In this document: positions 7,152 to 20,193 of the stretch, in pieces
Layout: each line of letters begins with the position of its first letter
Numbering within the stretch: the first letter of the stretch is position 1
The notes under the pieces: model-generated
Database searches by the model: none
Seen by the model: only the letters and a program-made list of their open reading frames with translations
What the model was told of the DNA's origin: nothing
Source of the DNA: a virus
IMG/VR virus record: IMGVR_UViG_3300017708_002539
Span: 1 to 20,902 of that record
Length of the DNA: 20,902 nt
Reading direction: 5' to 3' (one strand)
Translations under genes and position numbers: made by a program

Positions 7152-7181
7152 TTTGATAATAAACAAAAATTAGTTATATTG
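7152..7181 (+). promoter_or_regulatory. Promoter TTTG-N19-TATATTG before the hydroxymethylase-argGH unit
   Basis: TTTG at 7152-7155, exactly 19 bp, then TATATTG at 7175-7181: the same layout as the promoters at 1953 and 11042. The next start codon is at 7186, only 5 bp after the motif, so transcription should begin at or within a base or two of the ATG and the mRNA may be leaderless. Confidence 0.75.
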
Positions 7182-7185
7182 CAAC

Positions 7186-8049
7186 ATGGTTACATACAAT
7201 TCTTTAGAGGAAGCTCTAGTTAATGAAATTAGGGCGATAAATACTAGCGGATCTGAAACTAATTGTAGAGGTCGGGTCCAACGTGAAACAATATTCAGAT
7301 CATTCCGTATATTAGATCCTACTGACCTAGCAATTAAAAATCCAGCAAGGGCGTTTAACCCGGCATATGCATTTACAGAATGGTTTTGGTATCTAGGTAA
7401 AGATCCTAATGTCAGGAACATCGGTAAATTTGCTAAAATCTGGCTAGACATAGCCGACAGTACAGGTAGAGTCGAGTCCAATTATGGTACATATCTATTA
7501 GGCGATCAGTGGCAGTTTGTAAAGGATGAACTGCAAAGAGATCCATTTAGTAGAAGATGTACTATTGTCATTCATCAGCCTATGCACAAATACATGAATG
7601 ATCAGGACATGCCTTGTACTCAGTATGTACAGTTCTTTATTAGAGATAACAGACTGCATATGGGTGTAAATATGCGTAGTAATGACTTGATCTATGGCTT
7701 CTGTAATGACGTCTTTACATTTTCACTTTTTCAACAACTAATGCTCAATGACTTAAGACAGACAATGCCGGATCTTAAGCTCGGTCATTATTACCATAAT
7801 ACGGGTAGCATGCACGTTTATAAGCGTCATTTCGATATGATGTCCCAGATACTAGATATCCAGGACGCTAAAGAGTCTTTAGGTGGACCTACATATATAG
7901 TACATCTACCTGAGAATAAGTTTCAATTGAAGCCTGAAGTAACTTTAGATTTAATACAGTCTAACGGTTATATGTTGCCTAGAGTGGATGCATCTAAAGA
8001 GGACATGGAATACATAGTAAATGAATTAACTGATAAATTATTTCAATGA
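7186..8049 (+). CDS. Thymidylate-synthase-family pyrimidine hydroxymethylase, probably dCMP hydroxymethylase
   Basis: A 287-residue TS-fold enzyme. Catalytic Cys is C144 (DMPCTQY); phosphate-binding Arg residues are R123/R124 (FSRR) and R164 (NMRSND); E65 lies in EWFWYL; the H210/Y212 pair (SMHVY) is also present. The residue 31 after Cys is D175 (GFCND), where thymidylate synthase has Asn (E. coli C146/N177) and T4 dCMP hydroxymethylase has Asp (C148/D179). That swap is known to favour cytosine over uracil, so the enzyme probably makes 5-hydroxymethyl-dCMP from dCMP and methylenetetrahydrofolate. The C-terminal folate-closing tail of true thymidylate synthase is not recognisable. It is first in a unit with argG, argH and dut, and its stop overlaps the argG start. 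dUMP hydroxymethylase or dTMP synthase is less likely because those keep Asn. Confidence 0.82.
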   Translation: MVTYNSLEEALVNEIRAINTSGSETNCRGRVQRETIFRSFRILDPTDLAIKNPARAFNPAYAFTEWFWYLGKDPNVRNIGKFAKIWLDIADSTGRVESNYGTYLLGDQWQFVKDELQRDPFSRRCTIVIHQPMHKYMNDQDMPCTQYVQFFIRDNRLHMGVNMRSNDLIYGFCNDVFTFSLFQQLMLNDLRQTMPDLKLGHYYHNTGSMHVYKRHFDMMSQILDIQDAKESLGGPTYIVHLPENKFQLKPEVTLDLIQSNGYMLPRVDASKEDMEYIVNELTDKLFQ

Positions 8050-9332
8050 AAAAAGAATATTTCAAATCAGGCTATAAGCGAGTTGCATCGCATGAAGCCG
8101 TTCCAGGTACTTTCAGTAAGGTACTATTATTATACTCAGGTGGTTTAGATACATCTGTTATTACTAAACAAATCCAAGTAGACTACGGTGCAGAAGTATA
8201 TTGTCTGTGTATAGGTATAGGTCAATCAGATGACATTCTGTACCTATGTGACAAAGCACATGACCTTGGTGCAAAGGAGTTTGCATATGTGGATGTTACT
8301 GACGATTTTGTAAATGATATTTGCACTTTAGCAATCAAGGCCAACGCAGACTATGAAGATGGTTATAGACTATTCTGTCCTCTTGGTAGAGTACAAATTG
8401 CTAAAACAGCCGTTGAATATGCTGAACGTTGGGGTTGCAAAGTCATTGCACATGGATGTACAGGCAAAGGGAACGATCAAATCCGCTTTGAGAATTATAT
8501 TACAACCTTGAACCCAGATCTGAAAACACTTGCACCTGTTAGAGAATATGAAATGGGCCGTGAGCAGGAATTGGAATATGCTCGAGATCATGACATACCT
8601 GTTGAGCAATCTAAGGCTAAGATCTATAGTTATGATGAAAACATTTGGGGCTGTTCAGCTGAGGGTGGAGAAATCGAAGATCTAAACATGATACCGCGTT
8701 TACAGAACATTCTAAAGCGAGTTAAAGTTCCTGAAGATGCTCAAGAAGTTCCGCAACTTATTACGCTTTCATTTAACGAAGGGCTTGTTGAATCTATGGC
8801 ATATGGCCATAACATAGGACCAAAGCGAGACCTGCGATCTATTCTCGAGGATCTGAATCACGAGGGCAGTCTACATAGTATTGGAATAACGCATCTTATT
8901 GAAGATCGAGTAGTTGGTTTAAAGGTAAGAGGCGTGTATGAAGAACCTGGCGCTGAAATATTAGTTCAAGCACACATGGCTTTAGAAAAACTAGTTTGTA
9001 CTAGAGAAGAATACATGCACAAGAAGAACATCGATCAACAATGGGCTAATCTTGTATATGAAGGTAGATGGTACCATCCGTTAATGAATCATCTCAATGC
9101 ATACATTGAATCTGTAAACAAGAAAGTTACAGGTACTGTAGTAATGAAACTCTATAAGGGTACGGCTGAATGCGTAGCAATTGAATCACCGTATCAACTA
9201 TTCGAAGAGTCTGATGCTACGTTTATGTCAGGTGGTACATTTAACCAACAGGCATCAGCCGGCTTTATTGAGCATTTTGGATATTCACAACGAGTAGGTT
9301 ATAACAAAACTAAAGGTGTATATGAGCAATAA
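8046..9332 (+). CDS. argG: Argininosuccinate synthase
   Basis: A 428-residue enzyme joining citrulline and aspartate at the cost of ATP. The pyrophosphatase loop is YSGGLDTS (30-37). Residues that contact substrates in human ASS are all kept: Y107 (Y87), T139/N143/D144/R147 in CTGKGNDQIR (T119/N123/D124/R127), S195 and S204 in YSYDEN...GCS (S180/S189), and E286 and Y298 (E270/Y282). It should therefore bind citrulline, not merely a distant analogue. The length is normal (human 412, E. coli 447), with no frameshift. It overlaps the hydroxymethylase gene by ATGA with no Shine-Dalgarno sequence, so it is translationally coupled, and it overlaps argH by 11 bp. The sequence looks like the common bacterial type with YEDxY and DENxWG, unlike the short Bacteroidota ArgG I remember. 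Confidence 0.93.
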   Translation: MKKEYFKSGYKRVASHEAVPGTFSKVLLLYSGGLDTSVITKQIQVDYGAEVYCLCIGIGQSDDILYLCDKAHDLGAKEFAYVDVTDDFVNDICTLAIKANADYEDGYRLFCPLGRVQIAKTAVEYAERWGCKVIAHGCTGKGNDQIRFENYITTLNPDLKTLAPVREYEMGREQELEYARDHDIPVEQSKAKIYSYDENIWGCSAEGGEIEDLNMIPRLQNILKRVKVPEDAQEVPQLITLSFNEGLVESMAYGHNIGPKRDLRSILEDLNHEGSLHSIGITHLIEDRVVGLKVRGVYEEPGAEILVQAHMALEKLVCTREEYMHKKNIDQQWANLVYEGRWYHPLMNHLNAYIESVNKKVTGTVVMKLYKGTAECVAIESPYQLFEESDATFMSGGTFNQQASAGFIEHFGYSQRVGYNKTKGVYEQ

Positions 9333-10590
9333 GATTTGGTCTAAGAACAACGATTCAATTTCAGATCCATTTATCACATCTTTTACTGTTGGTAATGATA
9401 ACCAATTAGATCAAGACGTGTTTATGGGGTACGACATCACCGCCACGCGGGCTCATGCTGAAGCTTTACGAAAGGCGGGTATCTATAGTCGAACTGAATT
9501 GAAACAGGTTAAACATGAACTTGATAATATATATACTGACTGGACTCACGGTCGTATTGAAGTTACTATTGACGATGAAGACGGTCATACTGTACTAGAA
9601 CGCCTGCTTACGGAAAGGCTAGGTGATATAGGTAAGAAGATACATACAGGCCGAAGTAGAAACGATCAATCACTAGTCGCTATGCGTCTTTTTATGGTCA
9701 ATACTCTAGACCTTCATATGGATTCTATCTTAAGCGGCTTATTATCTACGTTATATGATCTACAGTCCAGATATAGATATACGCTGTTTATAGGATATAG
9801 TCATACGCAGCAGGCCATGCCTATTACTTTAGGTCACTATTTCAATGGCTTTTTTGAACAACTGCAAGACGATAAGGGGTTCGCCAGATTGACCTGTAAA
9901 CACATTAATACTAATCCGCTAGGCAGCGGAGCTGGATTTGGCTCTATTGTACCTATTAACAGAAAGTTAACAACTCGTCTGTTAAATTTTGACTCAATTC
10001 AAAAAAATAGTTTATATTGTAAAAACTCTAAAGGTAAGATAGAACTAAAATATGTACATGCGTTGTCGCAGATCATGATGACTTTACAGAAAATATCTAC
10101 TGACATGATCCTGTATACGAGTAAAGAGTTTAATTTCTTTACTGCATCAGATCGTGTTTCAACGGGTTCAAGTATTATGCCTCAAAAAAGGAATTTAGAC
10201 GTTGCTGAAATAGTAAGAGGTAATTCAGCTTTACTATCCGGTATTGAAACACAAATCAAGACCATTTATCATGGGTTAACTTCAGGCTATCATAGAGACA
10301 CACAACTTATCAAGAAATGTATTTATGAGGCATATGAACTAACACATAAATCCGTCAAAGCCGTTGATACACTATTGACTAATCTTACTGTAAATGAAGA
10401 TCAAATATTTTTAAAGATAGACAAGACTATATTAGCAGCGGATATTGCGACTTACAATGCGTTAGACGGACAGCCTTTTAGAGACGCATATAAAACGGCA
10501 ATGGACGAAGTCATGAACATGGATTCTGAAGAAGCTTATTTAGCCATTGCTCTTAAGAGAAAAACAATCGGATCTCCGGGAAATTATTAA
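9322..10590 (+). CDS. argH: Argininosuccinate lyase
   Basis: A 422-residue fumarase/aspartase-superfamily lyase that splits argininosuccinate into arginine and fumarate. Motifs: TGRSRNDQ (109-116), general-base His H161 in GYSHTQQAMP, NPLGSGAGFG (198-207), and the flexible-loop signature TGSSIMPQKRN (281-291) with the catalytic Ser pair, K289 and N291. Leu replaces the usual Pro after the final Asn. The N-terminal FTVGND...LD segment and the SKGKIE stretch (236-241), in place of the usual SDRDHV, match the Bacteroidota subtype as I remember it. ATG 9322 (MSNKIW) was chosen over GTG 9316 because it matches the family N-terminus and has AAAGGTG upstream. It overlaps argG by 11 bp and precedes dut by 11 bp. 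Confidence 0.92.
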   Translation: MSNKIWSKNNDSISDPFITSFTVGNDNQLDQDVFMGYDITATRAHAEALRKAGIYSRTELKQVKHELDNIYTDWTHGRIEVTIDDEDGHTVLERLLTERLGDIGKKIHTGRSRNDQSLVAMRLFMVNTLDLHMDSILSGLLSTLYDLQSRYRYTLFIGYSHTQQAMPITLGHYFNGFFEQLQDDKGFARLTCKHINTNPLGSGAGFGSIVPINRKLTTRLLNFDSIQKNSLYCKNSKGKIELKYVHALSQIMMTLQKISTDMILYTSKEFNFFTASDRVSTGSSIMPQKRNLDVAEIVRGNSALLSGIETQIKTIYHGLTSGYHRDTQLIKKCIYEAYELTHKSVKAVDTLLTNLTVNEDQIFLKIDKTILAADIATYNALDGQPFRDAYKTAMDEVMNMDSEEAYLAIALKRKTIGSPGNY

Positions 10591-10601
10591 AGGAAAAATA
10601 A

Positions 10602-11039
10602 ATGAAAATTTCAAAAATTAGAGACGTAAAAACGCCGACACGTGCAAATATTGAAGATGCAGGAATCGACTTCTTTGTACCAAATACGCTTGAATCGTAT
10701 ACTGTTGAACCGGGCGCTTCAGTAATGATACCATCTGGTGTTAAAGTAAATGTTCCAACTGGTCATGCACTTATTGCATTCAACAAGTCAGGTATTGCTA
10801 CAAAGAAAAATTTACAGGTAGGAGCCTGTGTAGTTGACGTTGGTTATCAAGGCGAAATACACATCCATTTGACAAATGTCGGTATGGACACACAGATGAT
10901 ACATCCAGGTGATAAGATCGTACAATTCGTTCTTGTGCAACTAGGTAATCCTGATGTTGAAGTTGTACAGGAACAGTTTTTGTATGAAGGTGTTTCAAAT
11001 CGTGGTACTGGTGGCTTTGGTTCAACAGGTACAAAATAA
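10602..11039 (+). CDS. dut: dUTP diphosphatase (trimeric dUTPase)
   Basis: A 145-residue protein with all five dUTPase motifs in order: DAGIDFF (19-25), FNKSGIA (60-66, Lys for the usual Arg), VGACVVDVGYQGE with D79 and Y82, GDKIVQFVL (103-111), and the C-terminal lid RGTGGFGSTG (134-143). It hydrolyses dUTP to dUMP and PPi, keeping uracil out of DNA and supplying dUMP. T4 uses an unrelated all-alpha dCTPase/dUTPase (gp56), and no such gene is visible here. Whether this enzyme also hydrolyses dCTP, as a phage with modified cytosine would need, cannot be told from sequence. AAAGGA precedes ATG 10602. It ends the hydroxymethylase-argGH unit. Confidence 0.95.
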   Translation: MKISKIRDVKTPTRANIEDAGIDFFVPNTLESYTVEPGASVMIPSGVKVNVPTGHALIAFNKSGIATKKNLQVGACVVDVGYQGEIHIHLTNVGMDTQMIHPGDKIVQFVLVQLGNPDVEVVQEQFLYEGVSNRGTGGFGSTGTK

Positions 11040-11041
11040 TC

Positions 11042-11072
11042 TTTGGTGTTTAAACTATAATTGTTATATTAG
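11042..11072 (+). promoter_or_regulatory. Promoter TTTG-N19-TATATTAG before DNA polymerase
   Basis: TTTG at 11042-11045, exactly 19 bp, TATATTAG at 11065-11072. It is the third copy of the same layout and has the same 8-bp downstream element as the one at 1976. Expected transcription start is near 11077, about 13 nt before ATG 11090, with an A-rich leader and no Shine-Dalgarno sequence. Confidence 0.75.
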
Positions 11073-13579: not shown

Positions 13580-13876
13580 ATGCTTTATCCTATCTCTAAT
13601 AAAGTAGTAGTCAAAATTGTAGAAAACATTGGACAGACGGCCGGTGGGGTGATCCTTCCGGACATTGAACAAGAGGGAACTCTTTTAGGCAAAGTCGAAG
13701 CTGTAGGACCTGGAATCATGTTATCAACTGGCAAACGAGCACCTATGCAAGTCAGTCAATCTGATATCGTTGTATTTCCAAAATACAGTGCAAAGAAATT
13801 TGAAGTAGAGGATGACGTCTTCTATATTCTTCCTGAAAACGAAATCTTAACTATAACGGAGTCTGACAATGAATAA
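13580..13876 (+). CDS. groES: Co-chaperonin GroES
   Basis: A 98-residue Cpn10 protein that caps GroEL. It has the beta-barrel pattern LYPISNKVVVKIVE, a mobile loop with AGGVILPD (the VIL triplet corresponds to the GroEL-contacting IVL of E. coli GroES), and the VEAVGPG strand. It is a true GroES type, unlike the diverged T4 gp31. GGAG precedes ATG 13580. Its end overlaps the groEL start by 8 bp (ATGAATAA), so the two subunits are coupled. It probably helps fold phage capsid or other proteins together with the adjacent GroEL. Confidence 0.93.
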   Translation: MLYPISNKVVVKIVENIGQTAGGVILPDIEQEGTLLGKVEAVGPGIMLSTGKRAPMQVSQSDIVVFPKYSAKKFEVEDDVFYILPENEILTITESDNE

Positions 13877-15479
13877 GAATATTGAATTCTCAAACGATGC
13901 CAAAAGTGGCATACTAAAAGGTGTAGATAAACTAGCAAAAGCTGTAACGTCTACACTAGGACCTAAAGGTCGTACTGTTGTAATCGAAAAAGAAGGTGGA
14001 TTTTATTCCGCAACCAAAGACGGTGTATCAGTAGCCGAAGTGATTAAATTCGAAGATAAGCTAGAGGACGCAGGTGCTCAGATGGTAAAAGAAGTTGCTA
14101 GTCAAGTTAATGATGAAGCAGGTGATGGAACCACAACTGCAACCGTTCTTGCACATAACATTGTCACTGAAGGATTTAAGGCTGTAGAAGATGGGGCTAA
14201 TCCAGTTGACATCAAACGTGGAATGGACAAGGCTGTAGAAGTAATACTTGAAAAACTCGATGATGCTGCTAAAGTTGTCAGTACATATGATGAAATTAAG
14301 CAAGTAGCTTCTATTAGTGCCAATAGTGATGAAAAGGTAGGTTATCTTATCGCAAATGCTATTGATGAAGTTGGAACTGACGGCGTTGTTACTGTTGAAA
14401 ATAGTAATACTCATGAGGACGAACTTGAAATTGTAGAAGGTATGCAACTAGACAAGGGATATCTTTCACCATACTTCGTAAACAATCAGACTGAAATGAT
14501 TGCTCAGTATGAGAATCCTTACATATTACTAGTTGACGAGACCCTGAATGACATCAAGAAACTTGTCAAAGTTCTAGAATATTGTATTCAGATCGATAAG
14601 CCATTGGTAATTGTGGCTCAAGATGTAACGGGCGATGCATTGGCTGGACTTATAGTAAATAACGCTAGAGGTACTTTGAAATGTTGCGCAGTTAAAGCAC
14701 CTGCATTCGGTGATAAGCGAACTGACATTCTAGAGGACTTGGCTATCATTACTGGCGCTACTGTAGTAAGTAGTAAAAAGGCTATGCACGTTGACAAGTT
14801 TGATCCTGAATGGCTTGGCACAGCAAAAACTGTTACTGCAAATAGTCAGAAGACTGTGTTTGTTGATGGTCCTGGTACCAAAGAGCAAATCGAAGATCGA
14901 ATTACTGAAATTAAAACGTTAATCGATCAGTCAACTAGTCACTATGAAATTGAACTAATGCAAAAGAGACTTGGTAAACTATCAGGTGGAGTTGCTATTA
15001 TTAAGATTGGTGCACATTCCGAACTTGAACTCAAGGAAAAGAAAGATCGAGTTGAAGATTCACTTAATGCTACACGAGCCGCATTAGACGATGGTATTAT
15101 TGAAGGTGGAGGTGTTGCATTACTTAACTGTACTACAACTGAACCCGAGCCTCAGCATACAATTACTGATACTGATCAGGCTGTTGGCTGGCAAATCGTA
15201 ATGAATTCGCTTACAGCGCCATTGAAGGCCATAGTTCATAATGCAGGTCTTAATTTCAACGATATCTATAGTAAGCTAAACTCATCAACAGAGCCTGGCA
15301 TGGGTTTTGATGTATCAGGAGAGCAATATACTAATATGTTCGATGCTGGAATTATTGACCCAGTTAAAGTTACAAAGACCGCAATCACCAAGGCTGTTTC
15401 AGTTGCAGGTACAATTCTCATGACAGAGGCGGTTATTACTAATATTGACGAAGAAGAAGCTGCACCAAGTTTCATGTAA
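13869..15479 (+). CDS. groEL: Chaperonin GroEL
   Basis: A full-length Cpn60 of 536 residues that forms the ATP-driven folding ring. Visible features: TLGPKGR (29-35), the ATP loop GDGTTT (85-90), the catalytic Asp D397 in VEDSLNATRAA (E. coli D398), the hydrophobic apical substrate site starting at GYLSPYF (197-203), and EGGGVALL (412-419). The C-terminus ends in EEEAAPSFM, without the GGM repeats of bacterial GroEL. Nothing is missing that would prevent function. It lies directly after groES, which makes this a self-sufficient phage chaperonin rather than a single swapped subunit. A zinc-ribbon gene starts 10 bp downstream. Confidence 0.96.
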   Translation: MNKNIEFSNDAKSGILKGVDKLAKAVTSTLGPKGRTVVIEKEGGFYSATKDGVSVAEVIKFEDKLEDAGAQMVKEVASQVNDEAGDGTTTATVLAHNIVTEGFKAVEDGANPVDIKRGMDKAVEVILEKLDDAAKVVSTYDEIKQVASISANSDEKVGYLIANAIDEVGTDGVVTVENSNTHEDELEIVEGMQLDKGYLSPYFVNNQTEMIAQYENPYILLVDETLNDIKKLVKVLEYCIQIDKPLVIVAQDVTGDALAGLIVNNARGTLKCCAVKAPAFGDKRTDILEDLAIITGATVVSSKKAMHVDKFDPEWLGTAKTVTANSQKTVFVDGPGTKEQIEDRITEIKTLIDQSTSHYEIELMQKRLGKLSGGVAIIKIGAHSELELKEKKDRVEDSLNATRAALDDGIIEGGGVALLNCTTTEPEPQHTITDTDQAVGWQIVMNSLTAPLKAIVHNAGLNFNDIYSKLNSSTEPGMGFDVSGEQYTNMFDAGIIDPVKVTKTAITKAVSVAGTILMTEAVITNIDEEEAAPSFM

Positions 15480-17515: not shown

Positions 17516-18931
17516 ATGAAAAAGAAGTTATTGATGTTAAGCGACGACATCCGCTTACACTCTGGTGTAGGAACTATGGCGAGAGCTTTAGTTAAAGGTA
17601 CTGCACACAAATACGATTGGATCAACATCGGTGGTGCTGTTAATCATCCTGAACAGGGTAAGATATTTGACTTAAGTGAAGATGTAAACAAGCAGATGGG
17701 TATAACTGATGCTAGTGTAAAGGTTATTCCTGTACATGGTTATGGTGATGAAAACCTTTTGCGTCAAGTTTTACAACAAGAAAAGCCAGACGGTATTGTT
17801 CACTTTACCGATCCAAGATTTTGGGGCTGGCTATATAACATGGAACATGAACTTCGTCAGACCACGCCTTTGATGTATTACAATATTTGGGACGATCTGC
17901 CTTATCCGCATTGGAACGAGCCTTTTTATGATTGCTGCGATCTTTTGATGGCTATTTCAAAGCAGACTTATAACATTAATAAGCATGTATGCACAACTAG
18001 ACCTAGAAAGGAAGGTGTAGATCTTACTTATGTACCGCACGGTATAAACCCTGAAGAATTCTATCCTTGTCATACTGAAGCTGATGTTAGTGCAATTGCA
18101 GATATAAAGCAGCAAATGTTCGGAGACAATCAGCCTGAATTTATTGCCATGTTCAATTCAAGAAACATTAGACGAAAAGGCCCTTCTGACTTGATCTCCG
18201 GTTTTGCTAATTTCGTTAATGAAAATAAACTAGGTGATAAAGCCGCACTATTAATGCATACTGATATTGTAGATGAGCACGGTACTGATCTTCACGCTGT
18301 AGCAGAGAATCTTGCACCCGGCTGTAATATAGTATTTTCATCTAATAAAGTTTCTGCTCAGACATTGAACTGGTTTTACAATATGGCAGATGTAATGTGT
18401 AATCCTAGTTCAGCAGAAGGTTTTGGCTTAACACACGCTGAAGCGATGATGTCTGGAACTCCAACAATAGCAACGGTAACAGGCGGTCTTCAAGATCAAA
18501 TGGGCTTTATGAAGAATGTTTCAGGTAAGGGTAAATACAGATATATTGGTCTAGAAGACTTTACTGCAGATGTTCCAAGTAACTCAGCAGGTAAGCAATC
18601 TCTCAATTCTGGGCCTTGGACTTTTCCATTATTTCCAAACATGAGCTTACAAGGATCTCCGCAGACTCCATATATCTACGACTCTAGGCCGACTATATCG
18701 GACATAACACGAGGGTTAAATCATTGGTATAATATGTCAAAGGCTGATAGAGCTCGATTAGGTGCAGAGGGTAGAACTTACTTAATTGAACAAGGTTTTA
18801 CTGAAGAGGCTATGTGTTCTGAATTTGCAAAATCAGTTGATACTTGTTTTGAAAACTTTAAGCCAAGAACAAAATTTGAATTAATCGATACCAGTGTTAA
18901 ATATGAAAAATCAATCGGAGCTTTAGTATGA
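17516..18931 (+). CDS. GT-B (GT4-like) glycosyltransferase 1
   Basis: A 471-residue glycosyltransferase. The N-terminal LSDDIRLHSGVGTMARAL is an acceptor-side Rossmann start. The C-terminal domain has FNSRNIRRKGP (213-223), a GT4 donor-binding Arg/Lys pair, and the E-x7-E motif of retaining GT4 enzymes, E301/E309 in AEGFGLTHAEAMMSG. The sugar and acceptor cannot be read from sequence. Candidates are hydroxymethylcytosine in phage DNA, which the dCMP-hydroxymethylase-like gene at 7186 would supply, or host or virion surface components. It is not recognisably T4 alpha- or beta-glucosyltransferase. AAGGG precedes ATG 17516, and the stop overlaps the next glycosyltransferase start (ATGA at 18928). 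Confidence 0.85.
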   Translation: MKKKLLMLSDDIRLHSGVGTMARALVKGTAHKYDWINIGGAVNHPEQGKIFDLSEDVNKQMGITDASVKVIPVHGYGDENLLRQVLQQEKPDGIVHFTDPRFWGWLYNMEHELRQTTPLMYYNIWDDLPYPHWNEPFYDCCDLLMAISKQTYNINKHVCTTRPRKEGVDLTYVPHGINPEEFYPCHTEADVSAIADIKQQMFGDNQPEFIAMFNSRNIRRKGPSDLISGFANFVNENKLGDKAALLMHTDIVDEHGTDLHAVAENLAPGCNIVFSSNKVSAQTLNWFYNMADVMCNPSSAEGFGLTHAEAMMSGTPTIATVTGGLQDQMGFMKNVSGKGKYRYIGLEDFTADVPSNSAGKQSLNSGPWTFPLFPNMSLQGSPQTPYIYDSRPTISDITRGLNHWYNMSKADRARLGAEGRTYLIEQGFTEEAMCSEFAKSVDTCFENFKPRTKFELIDTSVKYEKSIGALV

Positions 18932-20193
18932 AACCGACATTAGTTATAAGTTGCCCGGCATCAAGCCGATCAGGATATGGAGATCATTCCAGAGACGTCA
19001 TTTATAGTTTTCTTAAATTAGACAAGTACAATGTTAGTATCTTAGACCAACCATGGGGAAATTGTCCAAGAACTGAATTGGAAAATCACCCGGAGATTGC
19101 TGTACGATGCATTCCAAATATTACTTTCAGACCTGACATCTGGGTCCAGATCACAGTACCTAATGAATTTACACCAGTTGGAAAATACAACGTCGGTATT
19201 ACTGCAGGTATAGAAACGACGTTAGCAGCAGGCCCATGGATTCAAGGTTGTAATAACATGAACTTGATCCTTGTTCCAAGCAAGCACGCTAAAGATGTAT
19301 TTGAAGCCAGTAAATGGGAAATGCGAGACAGTAATACACAACAAGTTACAGGCAATCTTGAACTTCAAGTTCCTGTTGAAGTACTACATGAAGGTTTAGA
19401 TCTTTCTGTTTACAATAAGCGTAGGGACGTAGACCCGGAAGTTGAAGCATTTATGAGCCAGATCCAGGAAAAGTTTTGCTTCTTGTTTGTAGGTCATTGG
19501 CTAAAGGGTAATCCGGGTCATGACAGAAAGAACATTGCTCGAATGTTGAACCTTTTTACTGAAGCTTTCAAAAACAAATCTTCTAGGAATCGACCTGCTC
19601 TAATATTGAAAACTGGCATGTCCGGCTTTAGTAGAGTTGATGAATATGAACTATTGAAGAGAATACGACAGTACACCGGTAAAAATGGTCCTAAAGTTTA
19701 CTTACTACATGGTGATCTTACACCTTTACAAATGAACGCGCTATATAACCATAGTAAGGTTAAATCAATGATATCTTTTACTAAGGGAGAAGGATATGGT
19801 CGTCCACTGTTAGAGTTTAGTGTAACTGGTAAACCTGTAATCTGTTCTAATTGGTCAGGTCACTTGGACTTTATGTCAGAACATGGAGTTCTAGTTCCAG
19901 GTCAGTTAAATCAAGTTGATCCATCTGCAGTTTGGAAAGACGTTATTGTACCAGAAAGCTCGTGGTTTGATATTGATCCAGGCATTGCTGTTCAGTTGAT
20001 GCAAAGTGTTCATTCGGACTATAAAGCCTATTTACCTAAAACTGCTAAGCAGACTAAATACGTCAAGGACAATTTTAGTATCAATAAGGTTACTGACGAT
20101 TTAAGTAATATTATTGACCAGTATTTCGTAGTTGAAAAACAACTGGAATTACCTACACTAAATCTTGAGCCTTTAGAGCTTCCGGAACTATAA
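18928..20193 (+). CDS. GT-B (GT4-like) glycosyltransferase 2
   Basis: A 421-residue glycosyltransferase coupled to the first by a 4-bp overlap. The N-terminal SSRSGYGDHSRDV loop and GITAGIETT (90-98) precede VEVLHEGLDL and the donor-side segment FLFVGHWLKGNPGHDRKN. The E-x7-E motif is E288/E296 in TKGEGYGRPLLE. The sequence differs clearly from its neighbour, so the two are not recent duplicates and may add successive sugars. The last 17 residues are a Leu/Glu/Pro-rich tail (ELPTLNLEPLELPEL), possibly a flexible extension. Donor and acceptor are unknown. Proteins with this N-terminal type are found in marine T4-like phages. Confidence 0.83.
   Translation: MKPTLVISCPASSRSGYGDHSRDVIYSFLKLDKYNVSILDQPWGNCPRTELENHPEIAVRCIPNITFRPDIWVQITVPNEFTPVGKYNVGITAGIETTLAAGPWIQGCNNMNLILVPSKHAKDVFEASKWEMRDSNTQQVTGNLELQVPVEVLHEGLDLSVYNKRRDVDPEVEAFMSQIQEKFCFLFVGHWLKGNPGHDRKNIARMLNLFTEAFKNKSSRNRPALILKTGMSGFSRVDEYELLKRIRQYTGKNGPKVYLLHGDLTPLQMNALYNHSKVKSMISFTKGEGYGRPLLEFSVTGKPVICSNWSGHLDFMSEHGVLVPGQLNQVDPSAVWKDVIVPESSWFDIDPGIAVQLMQSVHSDYKAYLPKTAKQTKYVKDNFSINKVTDDLSNIIDQYFVVEKQLELPTLNLEPLELPEL

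What the first reader, a model, noticed from the sequence alone, without database searches (positions are those of the whole stretch)
7186..11039. argG and argH embedded between a dCMP-hydroxymethylase-like gene and dUTPase in a phage operon
The four genes are co-directional behind one promoter, joined by a 4-bp overlap, an 11-bp overlap and an 11-bp gap. A two-step amino-acid pathway inside a pyrimidine cluster is not something I know from described phages. Hypothesis A: an auxiliary metabolic module turning citrulline into arginine plus fumarate during infection. Hypothesis B: the pair turns a ureido group, possibly on a modified base or its precursor, into a guanidino group. The linkage to the hydroxymethylase favours looking at B; the conserved citrulline contacts favour A.
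Basis: partly seen in the sequence, partly recalled or inferred. Interest (0 to 1): 0.82.

Follow-up and report, generated by a model that had tools for sequence, protein, structure and literature searches.

The report
Phage-borne arginine-making gene pair (argG–argH)
A virus of bacteria carries the two genes for the last steps of making the amino acid arginine, slotted among its DNA-building genes; they look like ordinary working arginine enzymes shared as a unit between unrelated viruses, most likely to keep arginine flowing in the infected cell.

Summary
In detail: dCMP-hydroxymethylase-like gene, argG, argH and dUTPase are co-directional (4-bp overlap, 11-bp overlap, 11-bp gap) behind one phage-type promoter in a T4-like replication region. 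ArgG and ArgH pass curated equivalog cut-offs and keep every citrulline/aspartate contact and core catalytic residue checked. Two other phage contigs, of a different lineage, carry the same argG–argH pair; the phage ArgGs form one clade and so do the phage ArgHs, beside Patescibacteria-type enzymes that are usually argG–argH neighbours too. In those phages the pair is not next to the hydroxymethylase. The window's closest isolated relative, Microcystis phage Mel-JY01, lacks hydroxymethylase, argG and argH, while dUTPase still sits just before DNA polymerase. So the hydroxymethylase link is loose. Best reading: a two-gene auxiliary metabolic cassette turning host citrulline into arginine plus fumarate (A). 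Base-directed guanidinylation (B) is disfavoured but not excluded. One unexpected lead keeps a related idea alive: one argGH phage also carries, about 40 kb away, an arginine-deiminase-family gene in a conserved block with two cytosine-type TS-family genes.

The parts
7152..7181 (+). Promoter-like element TTTG-N19-TATATTR upstream of the four-gene operon
   Evidence: Exact match; 3 in window (1953, 7152, 11042), 0.13 expected; pattern derived post hoc; function not tested
7186..8049 (+). dCMP-hydroxymethylase-like TS-superfamily enzyme
   Evidence: Pfam PF00303; best PDB match T4 dCMP hydroxymethylase 4e-24, CMP hydroxymethylase MilA 5e-24; Asp at the T4 D179 / E. coli 177 position and Thr at 147, the cytosine-type residues of PMC8670742, read from the alignment
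8046..9332 (+). argG, argininosuccinate synthase
   Evidence: NF001770 and TIGR00032 over equivalog cut-off; all mapped substrate contacts kept
9322..10590 (+). argH, argininosuccinate lyase (alternative GTG start 9316)
   Evidence: TIGR00838 over equivalog cut-off; catalytic residues kept
10602..11039 (+). dUTPase; belongs to the conserved dUTPase-PolB context rather than to the arg cassette
   Evidence: PF00692, phrog_135; 29% identical dUTPase shortly before PolB in Mel-JY01
11042..11071 (+). Second copy of the promoter-like element, upstream of PolB

Best explanation
A phage auxiliary metabolic cassette. The phage makes its own ArgG and ArgH, apparently co-transcribed with nucleotide-metabolism genes. 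ArgG joins citrulline and aspartate at the cost of ATP to argininosuccinate; ArgH splits this into arginine and fumarate. Citrulline would come from the host, since no ornithine carbamoyltransferase is seen in any of these phage records. The purpose is most likely to hold up arginine supply during infection. Shown: gene identity, intact active-site residues, shared descent of the pair in unlike phages, dN well below dS. Inferred: the reaction, the citrulline source, the benefit to the phage. The place beside the hydroxymethylase reflects a shared promoter and insertion slot, not a shared pathway.
For: ArgG and ArgH over curated equivalog cut-offs; the exception family argG_rel not reached, 152 vs 425. 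ArgG keeps Y84, T116, N120, D121, R124, S173, S182, E258, Y270 of the Thermus enzyme (site list from memory). ArgH keeps H162, S283, K289, N291, E296, Y323, Q328, K331 (site list from memory). Pair adjacent in two other phages and in most nearest bacterial relatives. Phage ArgGs one clade (100/90), phage ArgHs one clade (SH-aLRT 99, quick tree). Francisella L064: argG-argH followed by ORFs read as argR, argD, argC, argJ. dN/dS about 0.1-0.25. No TS/argG/argH in Mel-JY01 although dUTPase-PolB order is kept. No OTC.
Against: No activity shown; host and its arginine status unknown. The only operon partners in the window are pyrimidine enzymes. G001 shows that at least one argGH phage also has arginine-family chemistry beside cytosine-type TS genes. 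dS is near saturation, so dN/dS is rough. ArgH site R238 is K in the window.
Confidence: 0.72

Rival explanations
1. Hypothesis B: the pair acts on a ureido or carbamoyl group of a modified cytosine (or its precursor) and turns it into a guanidino group.
For: Same operon as a cytosine-type hydroxymethylase. Carbamoylation of 5hmC by phage-type enzymes is known (PMC8670742), so a carbamoyl group on hmC is chemically plausible.
Against: Equivalog-level scores and unchanged substrate contacts; pair not next to TS in G001, no TS in the G002 fragment; no carbamoyltransferase found near the pair, and no OTC-type domain in the records; closest bacterial relatives look like plain arginine enzymes.
Confidence: 0.06
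2. Arginine as feedstock: ArgG-ArgH make free arginine normally, but its main use is a base or nucleotide modification (or arginine recycling) run by an arginine-deiminase-family enzyme together with cytosine-type TS enzymes.
For: G001 has PF02274 + two TS-like + APH-kinase-like + sulfotransferase-like genes in one block, conserved in G008 and G009; PF02274 protein aligns its Cys, His and acidic residue with DDAH/ADI; G008 and G002, from one metagenome, cover different parts of the G001 map.
Against: No PF02274 gene in the window fragment; pair and block are about 40 kb apart in G001; G009 does not cover the argGH locus, so linkage rests on one contig; substrate of the PF02274 protein unknown, structure model too poor to use.
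Confidence: 0.12
3. The cassette serves something other than arginine itself: fumarate supply or drawing off aspartate during infection.
For: The reaction also yields fumarate; ArgH without ArgG is seen in other phage contigs, L015-L017.
Against: ArgG and ArgH are kept together in all three phages of this clade, and their bacterial relatives look like arginine genes; the L015-L017 records are fragments, so a missing ArgG is not proven.
Confidence: 0.08
4. Assembly chimera or host contamination joined to phage DNA.
For: Every argG/argH hit that I opened in the isolated-phage collection looks like host or unverified DNA.
Against: Overlapping start/stop codons with a phage gene, matching GC3, flanking promoter copies, independent phage contigs with the same clade.
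Confidence: 0.02

Closest known systems
Bacterial ArgG-ArgH pair of Peribacteria/Peregrinibacteria type (e.g. L041, L043, L044)
   Same: About 57% (ArgG) and 44% (ArgH) identity, adjacent genes, same YxLFCPLGR motif in ArgG, same N-terminal VASHEA-type extension
   Different: Here in a phage replication operon behind a phage-type promoter; the phage versions form their own clades
Viral contig S27C7391 of a skin virome study (PMC11549919)
   Same: argG and argH reported on a contig classed as Caudoviricetes
   Different: There with argC, argD, otc and argR, i.e. a fuller operon, possibly host DNA (my inference); here only the last two steps, among phage replication genes
T4 gp42 dCMP hydroxymethylase setting of T4-like phages
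   Same: Cytosine-type TS-family enzyme in a T4-like replication region
   Different: No argG/argH there; in the window's closest isolated relative even the TS gene is missing
5hmC carbamoyltransferase systems (PMC8670742)
   Same: TS-family cytosine enzyme near an enzyme that could handle carbamoyl chemistry
   Different: No carbamoyltransferase identified here; ArgG/ArgH read as ordinary arginine enzymes

Membership tests
argininosuccinate synthase (ArgG) | Score above curated equivalog cut-off | tested here: met
   NF001770 427.9 vs 334; TIGR00032 377.8 vs 268.2; argG_rel exception not reached
argininosuccinate synthase (ArgG) | Citrulline, aspartate and ATP-loop residues | tested here: met
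   Nine mapped contacts identical to Thermus ArgG (sites from memory); YSGGLDTS loop present
argininosuccinate synthase (ArgG) | Makes argininosuccinate from citrulline and aspartate | not testable with these tools
   needs an enzyme assay
argininosuccinate lyase (ArgH) | Score above curated equivalog cut-off | tested here: met
   TIGR00838 296 vs 279.5
argininosuccinate lyase (ArgH) | Catalytic His, flexible-loop Ser, Lys/Asn/Glu signature | tested here: met
   H162, S283, K289, N291, E296 kept (sites from memory)
dCMP hydroxymethylase | TS fold with Asp in place of Asn177 and no His147 | tested here: met
   FCND and PCT in the alignment; positions from PMC8670742
dCMP hydroxymethylase | dCMP rather than CMP or dUMP as substrate, hydroxymethyl product | not testable with these tools
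   T4 enzyme and MilA are near equal in score
phage auxiliary metabolic gene | Host-type metabolic gene flanked by phage genes, intact, kept under purifying selection | tested here: met
   dN/dS rough because dS is high
phage auxiliary metabolic gene | Improves infection | not testable with these tools
   needs phage and host in culture
guanidino-base hypermodification module (hypothesis B) | Stable genetic linkage of argGH to base-modification genes | tested here: not met
   Different neighbours in G001 and G002
guanidino-base hypermodification module (hypothesis B) | Modified guanidino nucleoside in virion DNA | not testable with these tools
   needs mass spectrometry

The most novel reading that the evidence does not exclude
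Phages that use arginine chemistry to hypermodify cytosine: an arginine-deiminase/amidinotransferase-family enzyme, two cytosine-type TS enzymes and a kinase build an arginine-derived group on hydroxymethylcytosine, and phage ArgG-ArgH supply or regenerate the arginine.
Probability: 0.1. Interest if true: 0.85.

Novelty: new member of a known kind. Interest (0 to 1): 0.47.

Why it matters
It documents an argG-argH pair inside a genuine phage replication operon and indicates that the pair moves between very different phages as a cassette, so arginine supply may be something some phages control themselves. It also points to a conserved phage gene block, not matched in the isolated-phage collection, that joins an arginine-deiminase-family enzyme to cytosine-type TS enzymes and can be tested directly.

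Tried and rejected
Single-protein scans of viral contigs with window ArgG or TS found nothing; alignment-based scans were needed. Of the isolated-phage hits, those opened were set aside as host or unverified DNA: Acinetobacter 'phage' contigs with chromosomal genes and unverified records with bacterial neighbours, including 'Pseudomonas phage Y5'; the other hits were not opened. A structure of the PF02274 protein from three sequences was too poor (mean pLDDT 45) to search with. Relatives of a virus record are not drawn. A strict Bacteroidota promoter (TTTG-N-TANNTTTG) is absent from the + strand, so a Bacteroidota host is only a suggestion, and the closest isolated relative is recorded from Microcystis. 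The idea that the GT4 pair downstream glycosylates the hydroxymethylated base was weakened: Mel-JY01 has the same pair without a TS gene. Paper searches found nothing on phage ArgG/ArgH acting on bases.

Full report
What is there. The window is a 20,902-bp IMG/VR fragment of a T4-like replication region: gp32-like SSB, RecA/UvsX-type recombinase, 5'-3' exonuclease, DnaB-type helicase and class II RNR, then the four-gene operon, PolB, GroES and GroEL (the GroES/GroEL names are read from the sequences). A motif TTTG-N19-TATATTR stands exactly three times in the window, each time in a leader, including 7152 before this operon and 11042 before PolB. I derived it from these sites, so its statistics flatter it. 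Similar TTG-N20-TATATT elements stand upstream of genes in Mel-JY01.

What the proteins are. The first gene is a TS-superfamily member nearest in the PDB to T4 dCMP hydroxymethylase, with the CMP hydroxymethylase MilA almost level. It carries Asp and Thr at the two positions that PMC8670742 found to separate enzymes of modified-cytosine contigs from ordinary thymidylate synthases. ArgG and ArgH pass NCBIfam equivalog cut-offs. ArgG keeps the nine substrate contacts mapped from the Thermus enzyme, and ArgH keeps its core catalytic residues, with one R-to-K change at R238; both site lists are from memory. dN is well below dS between the phage copies, though dS is high enough to make the ratios rough.

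Relatives. Alignment-based scans of the viral contigs found two further phages with an adjacent argG-argH pair: G001 (89.8 kb) and G002 (53.6 kb), whose ArgGs are 58-59% and ArgHs 44-45% identical to the window's. Apart from these genes and TS-like genes, no window protein has a match in them at the threshold used. The three phage ArgGs form one clade (100/90); so do the three phage ArgHs (SH-aLRT 99; a quick tree, because the careful search did not finish). The nearest bacterial relatives found are Patescibacteria-type, mostly with argG and argH side by side. That sample was drawn by sequence patterns, so the true donor may lie elsewhere. In Francisella (L064), a more distant member of the same large clade, the pair is followed by ORFs that I read as argR, argD, argC and argJ (by eye, not by HMM). 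This favours ordinary arginine synthesis for the ArgG type, and the trees favour transfer of the pair as a unit.

Why the hydroxymethylase link is weak. In G001 the pair lies among ORFs with a T4-capsid-targeting-like start and phosphatase-like genes, about 40 kb from that phage's TS genes; the G002 fragment has no TS. The closest isolated phage by RNR (67%) and RecA (53%) is Microcystis phage Mel-JY01. It shares the order gp32-RecA-exonuclease-helicase-RNR and has a dUTPase shortly before PolB, but no TS and no argG or argH. The simplest reading is that TS-argG-argH is cargo in a variable slot between RNR and dUTPase-PolB. The alternative, loss in Mel-JY01, is not excluded by one comparison.

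The unexpected lead. G001 has, at 27.0-33.9 kb, a run of guanylate-kinase-like, thymidylate-kinase-like, sulfotransferase-like, PF02274 (arginine deiminase family), TS-like, APH-kinase-like and TS-like genes with one unassigned gene between. Both TS-like proteins carry the cytosine-type Asp (by eye). The block is conserved in G008 and G009. G008 and G002 come from one metagenome and cover different parts of the G001 map, so they may be one phage (inference). The PF02274 protein aligns its Cys, His and acidic residue with DDAH, and nothing like it was found in the isolated-phage collection. It could make citrulline, which ArgG-ArgH would recycle, or move an amidino group. This does not establish base modification, but keeps an arginine-to-base connection open.

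Mechanism and verdict. Best: ArgG-ArgH convert host citrulline to arginine plus fumarate during infection (0.72). No ornithine carbamoyltransferase was found in any of the phage records searched, most of which are fragments. Direct guanidinylation of a base by ArgG-ArgH (B): about 0.06; arginine as feedstock for a base modification or recycling: about 0.12. As a kind it is an auxiliary metabolic gene pair: a new member of a known kind, of moderate interest.

Noticed in passing
L029:7018-13431 (G001 27.0-33.4 kb); L038; L039: Conserved phage block: guanylate-kinase-like, thymidylate-kinase-like, sulfotransferase-like, PF02274 arginine-deiminase-family, two cytosine-type TS-family genes and an APH-like kinase.
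   Followed up: partly
L015:5977-7332; L016:5253-6587; L017:5044-6378: Other viral contigs carry an argH of another (Bacteroidota-like) type without argG on the fragment; in L016/L017 it follows a PRK06886/cytosine-deaminase-like amidohydrolase.
   Followed up: partly
G001 and G002 (L028-L035), many ORFs: Many ORFs begin with an MKxFxxFxxE-like stretch resembling the T4 capsid-targeting sequence (resemblance from memory, not tested).
   Followed up: no
window 1953, 7152, 11042; L112:8696, 21117, 26887, 31514, 38373: Phage promoter-like elements TTTG-N19-TATATTR (window) and TTG-N20-TATATT (Mel-JY01), reminiscent of Bacteroidota -33/-7 promoters although Mel-JY01 is recorded from Microcystis.
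   Followed up: partly
window 17516-20193: Two GT4-type glycosyltransferase genes that are syntenic with glycosyltransferases of Mel-JY01, which has no TS gene, so they need not act on hydroxymethylated bases.
   Followed up: partly
window 13580-15479: Phage-encoded GroES-like and GroEL-like genes downstream of PolB, also present in the window's 55% PolB relative L109.
   Followed up: no
phages collection: CAKLQF02/CAKLQH02, OQ572407, OR844991, MT83xxxx records: Several records filed as phage look like host DNA (chromosomal arg, hem or efflux genes) and would mislead automated searches for auxiliary metabolic genes.
   Followed up: partly
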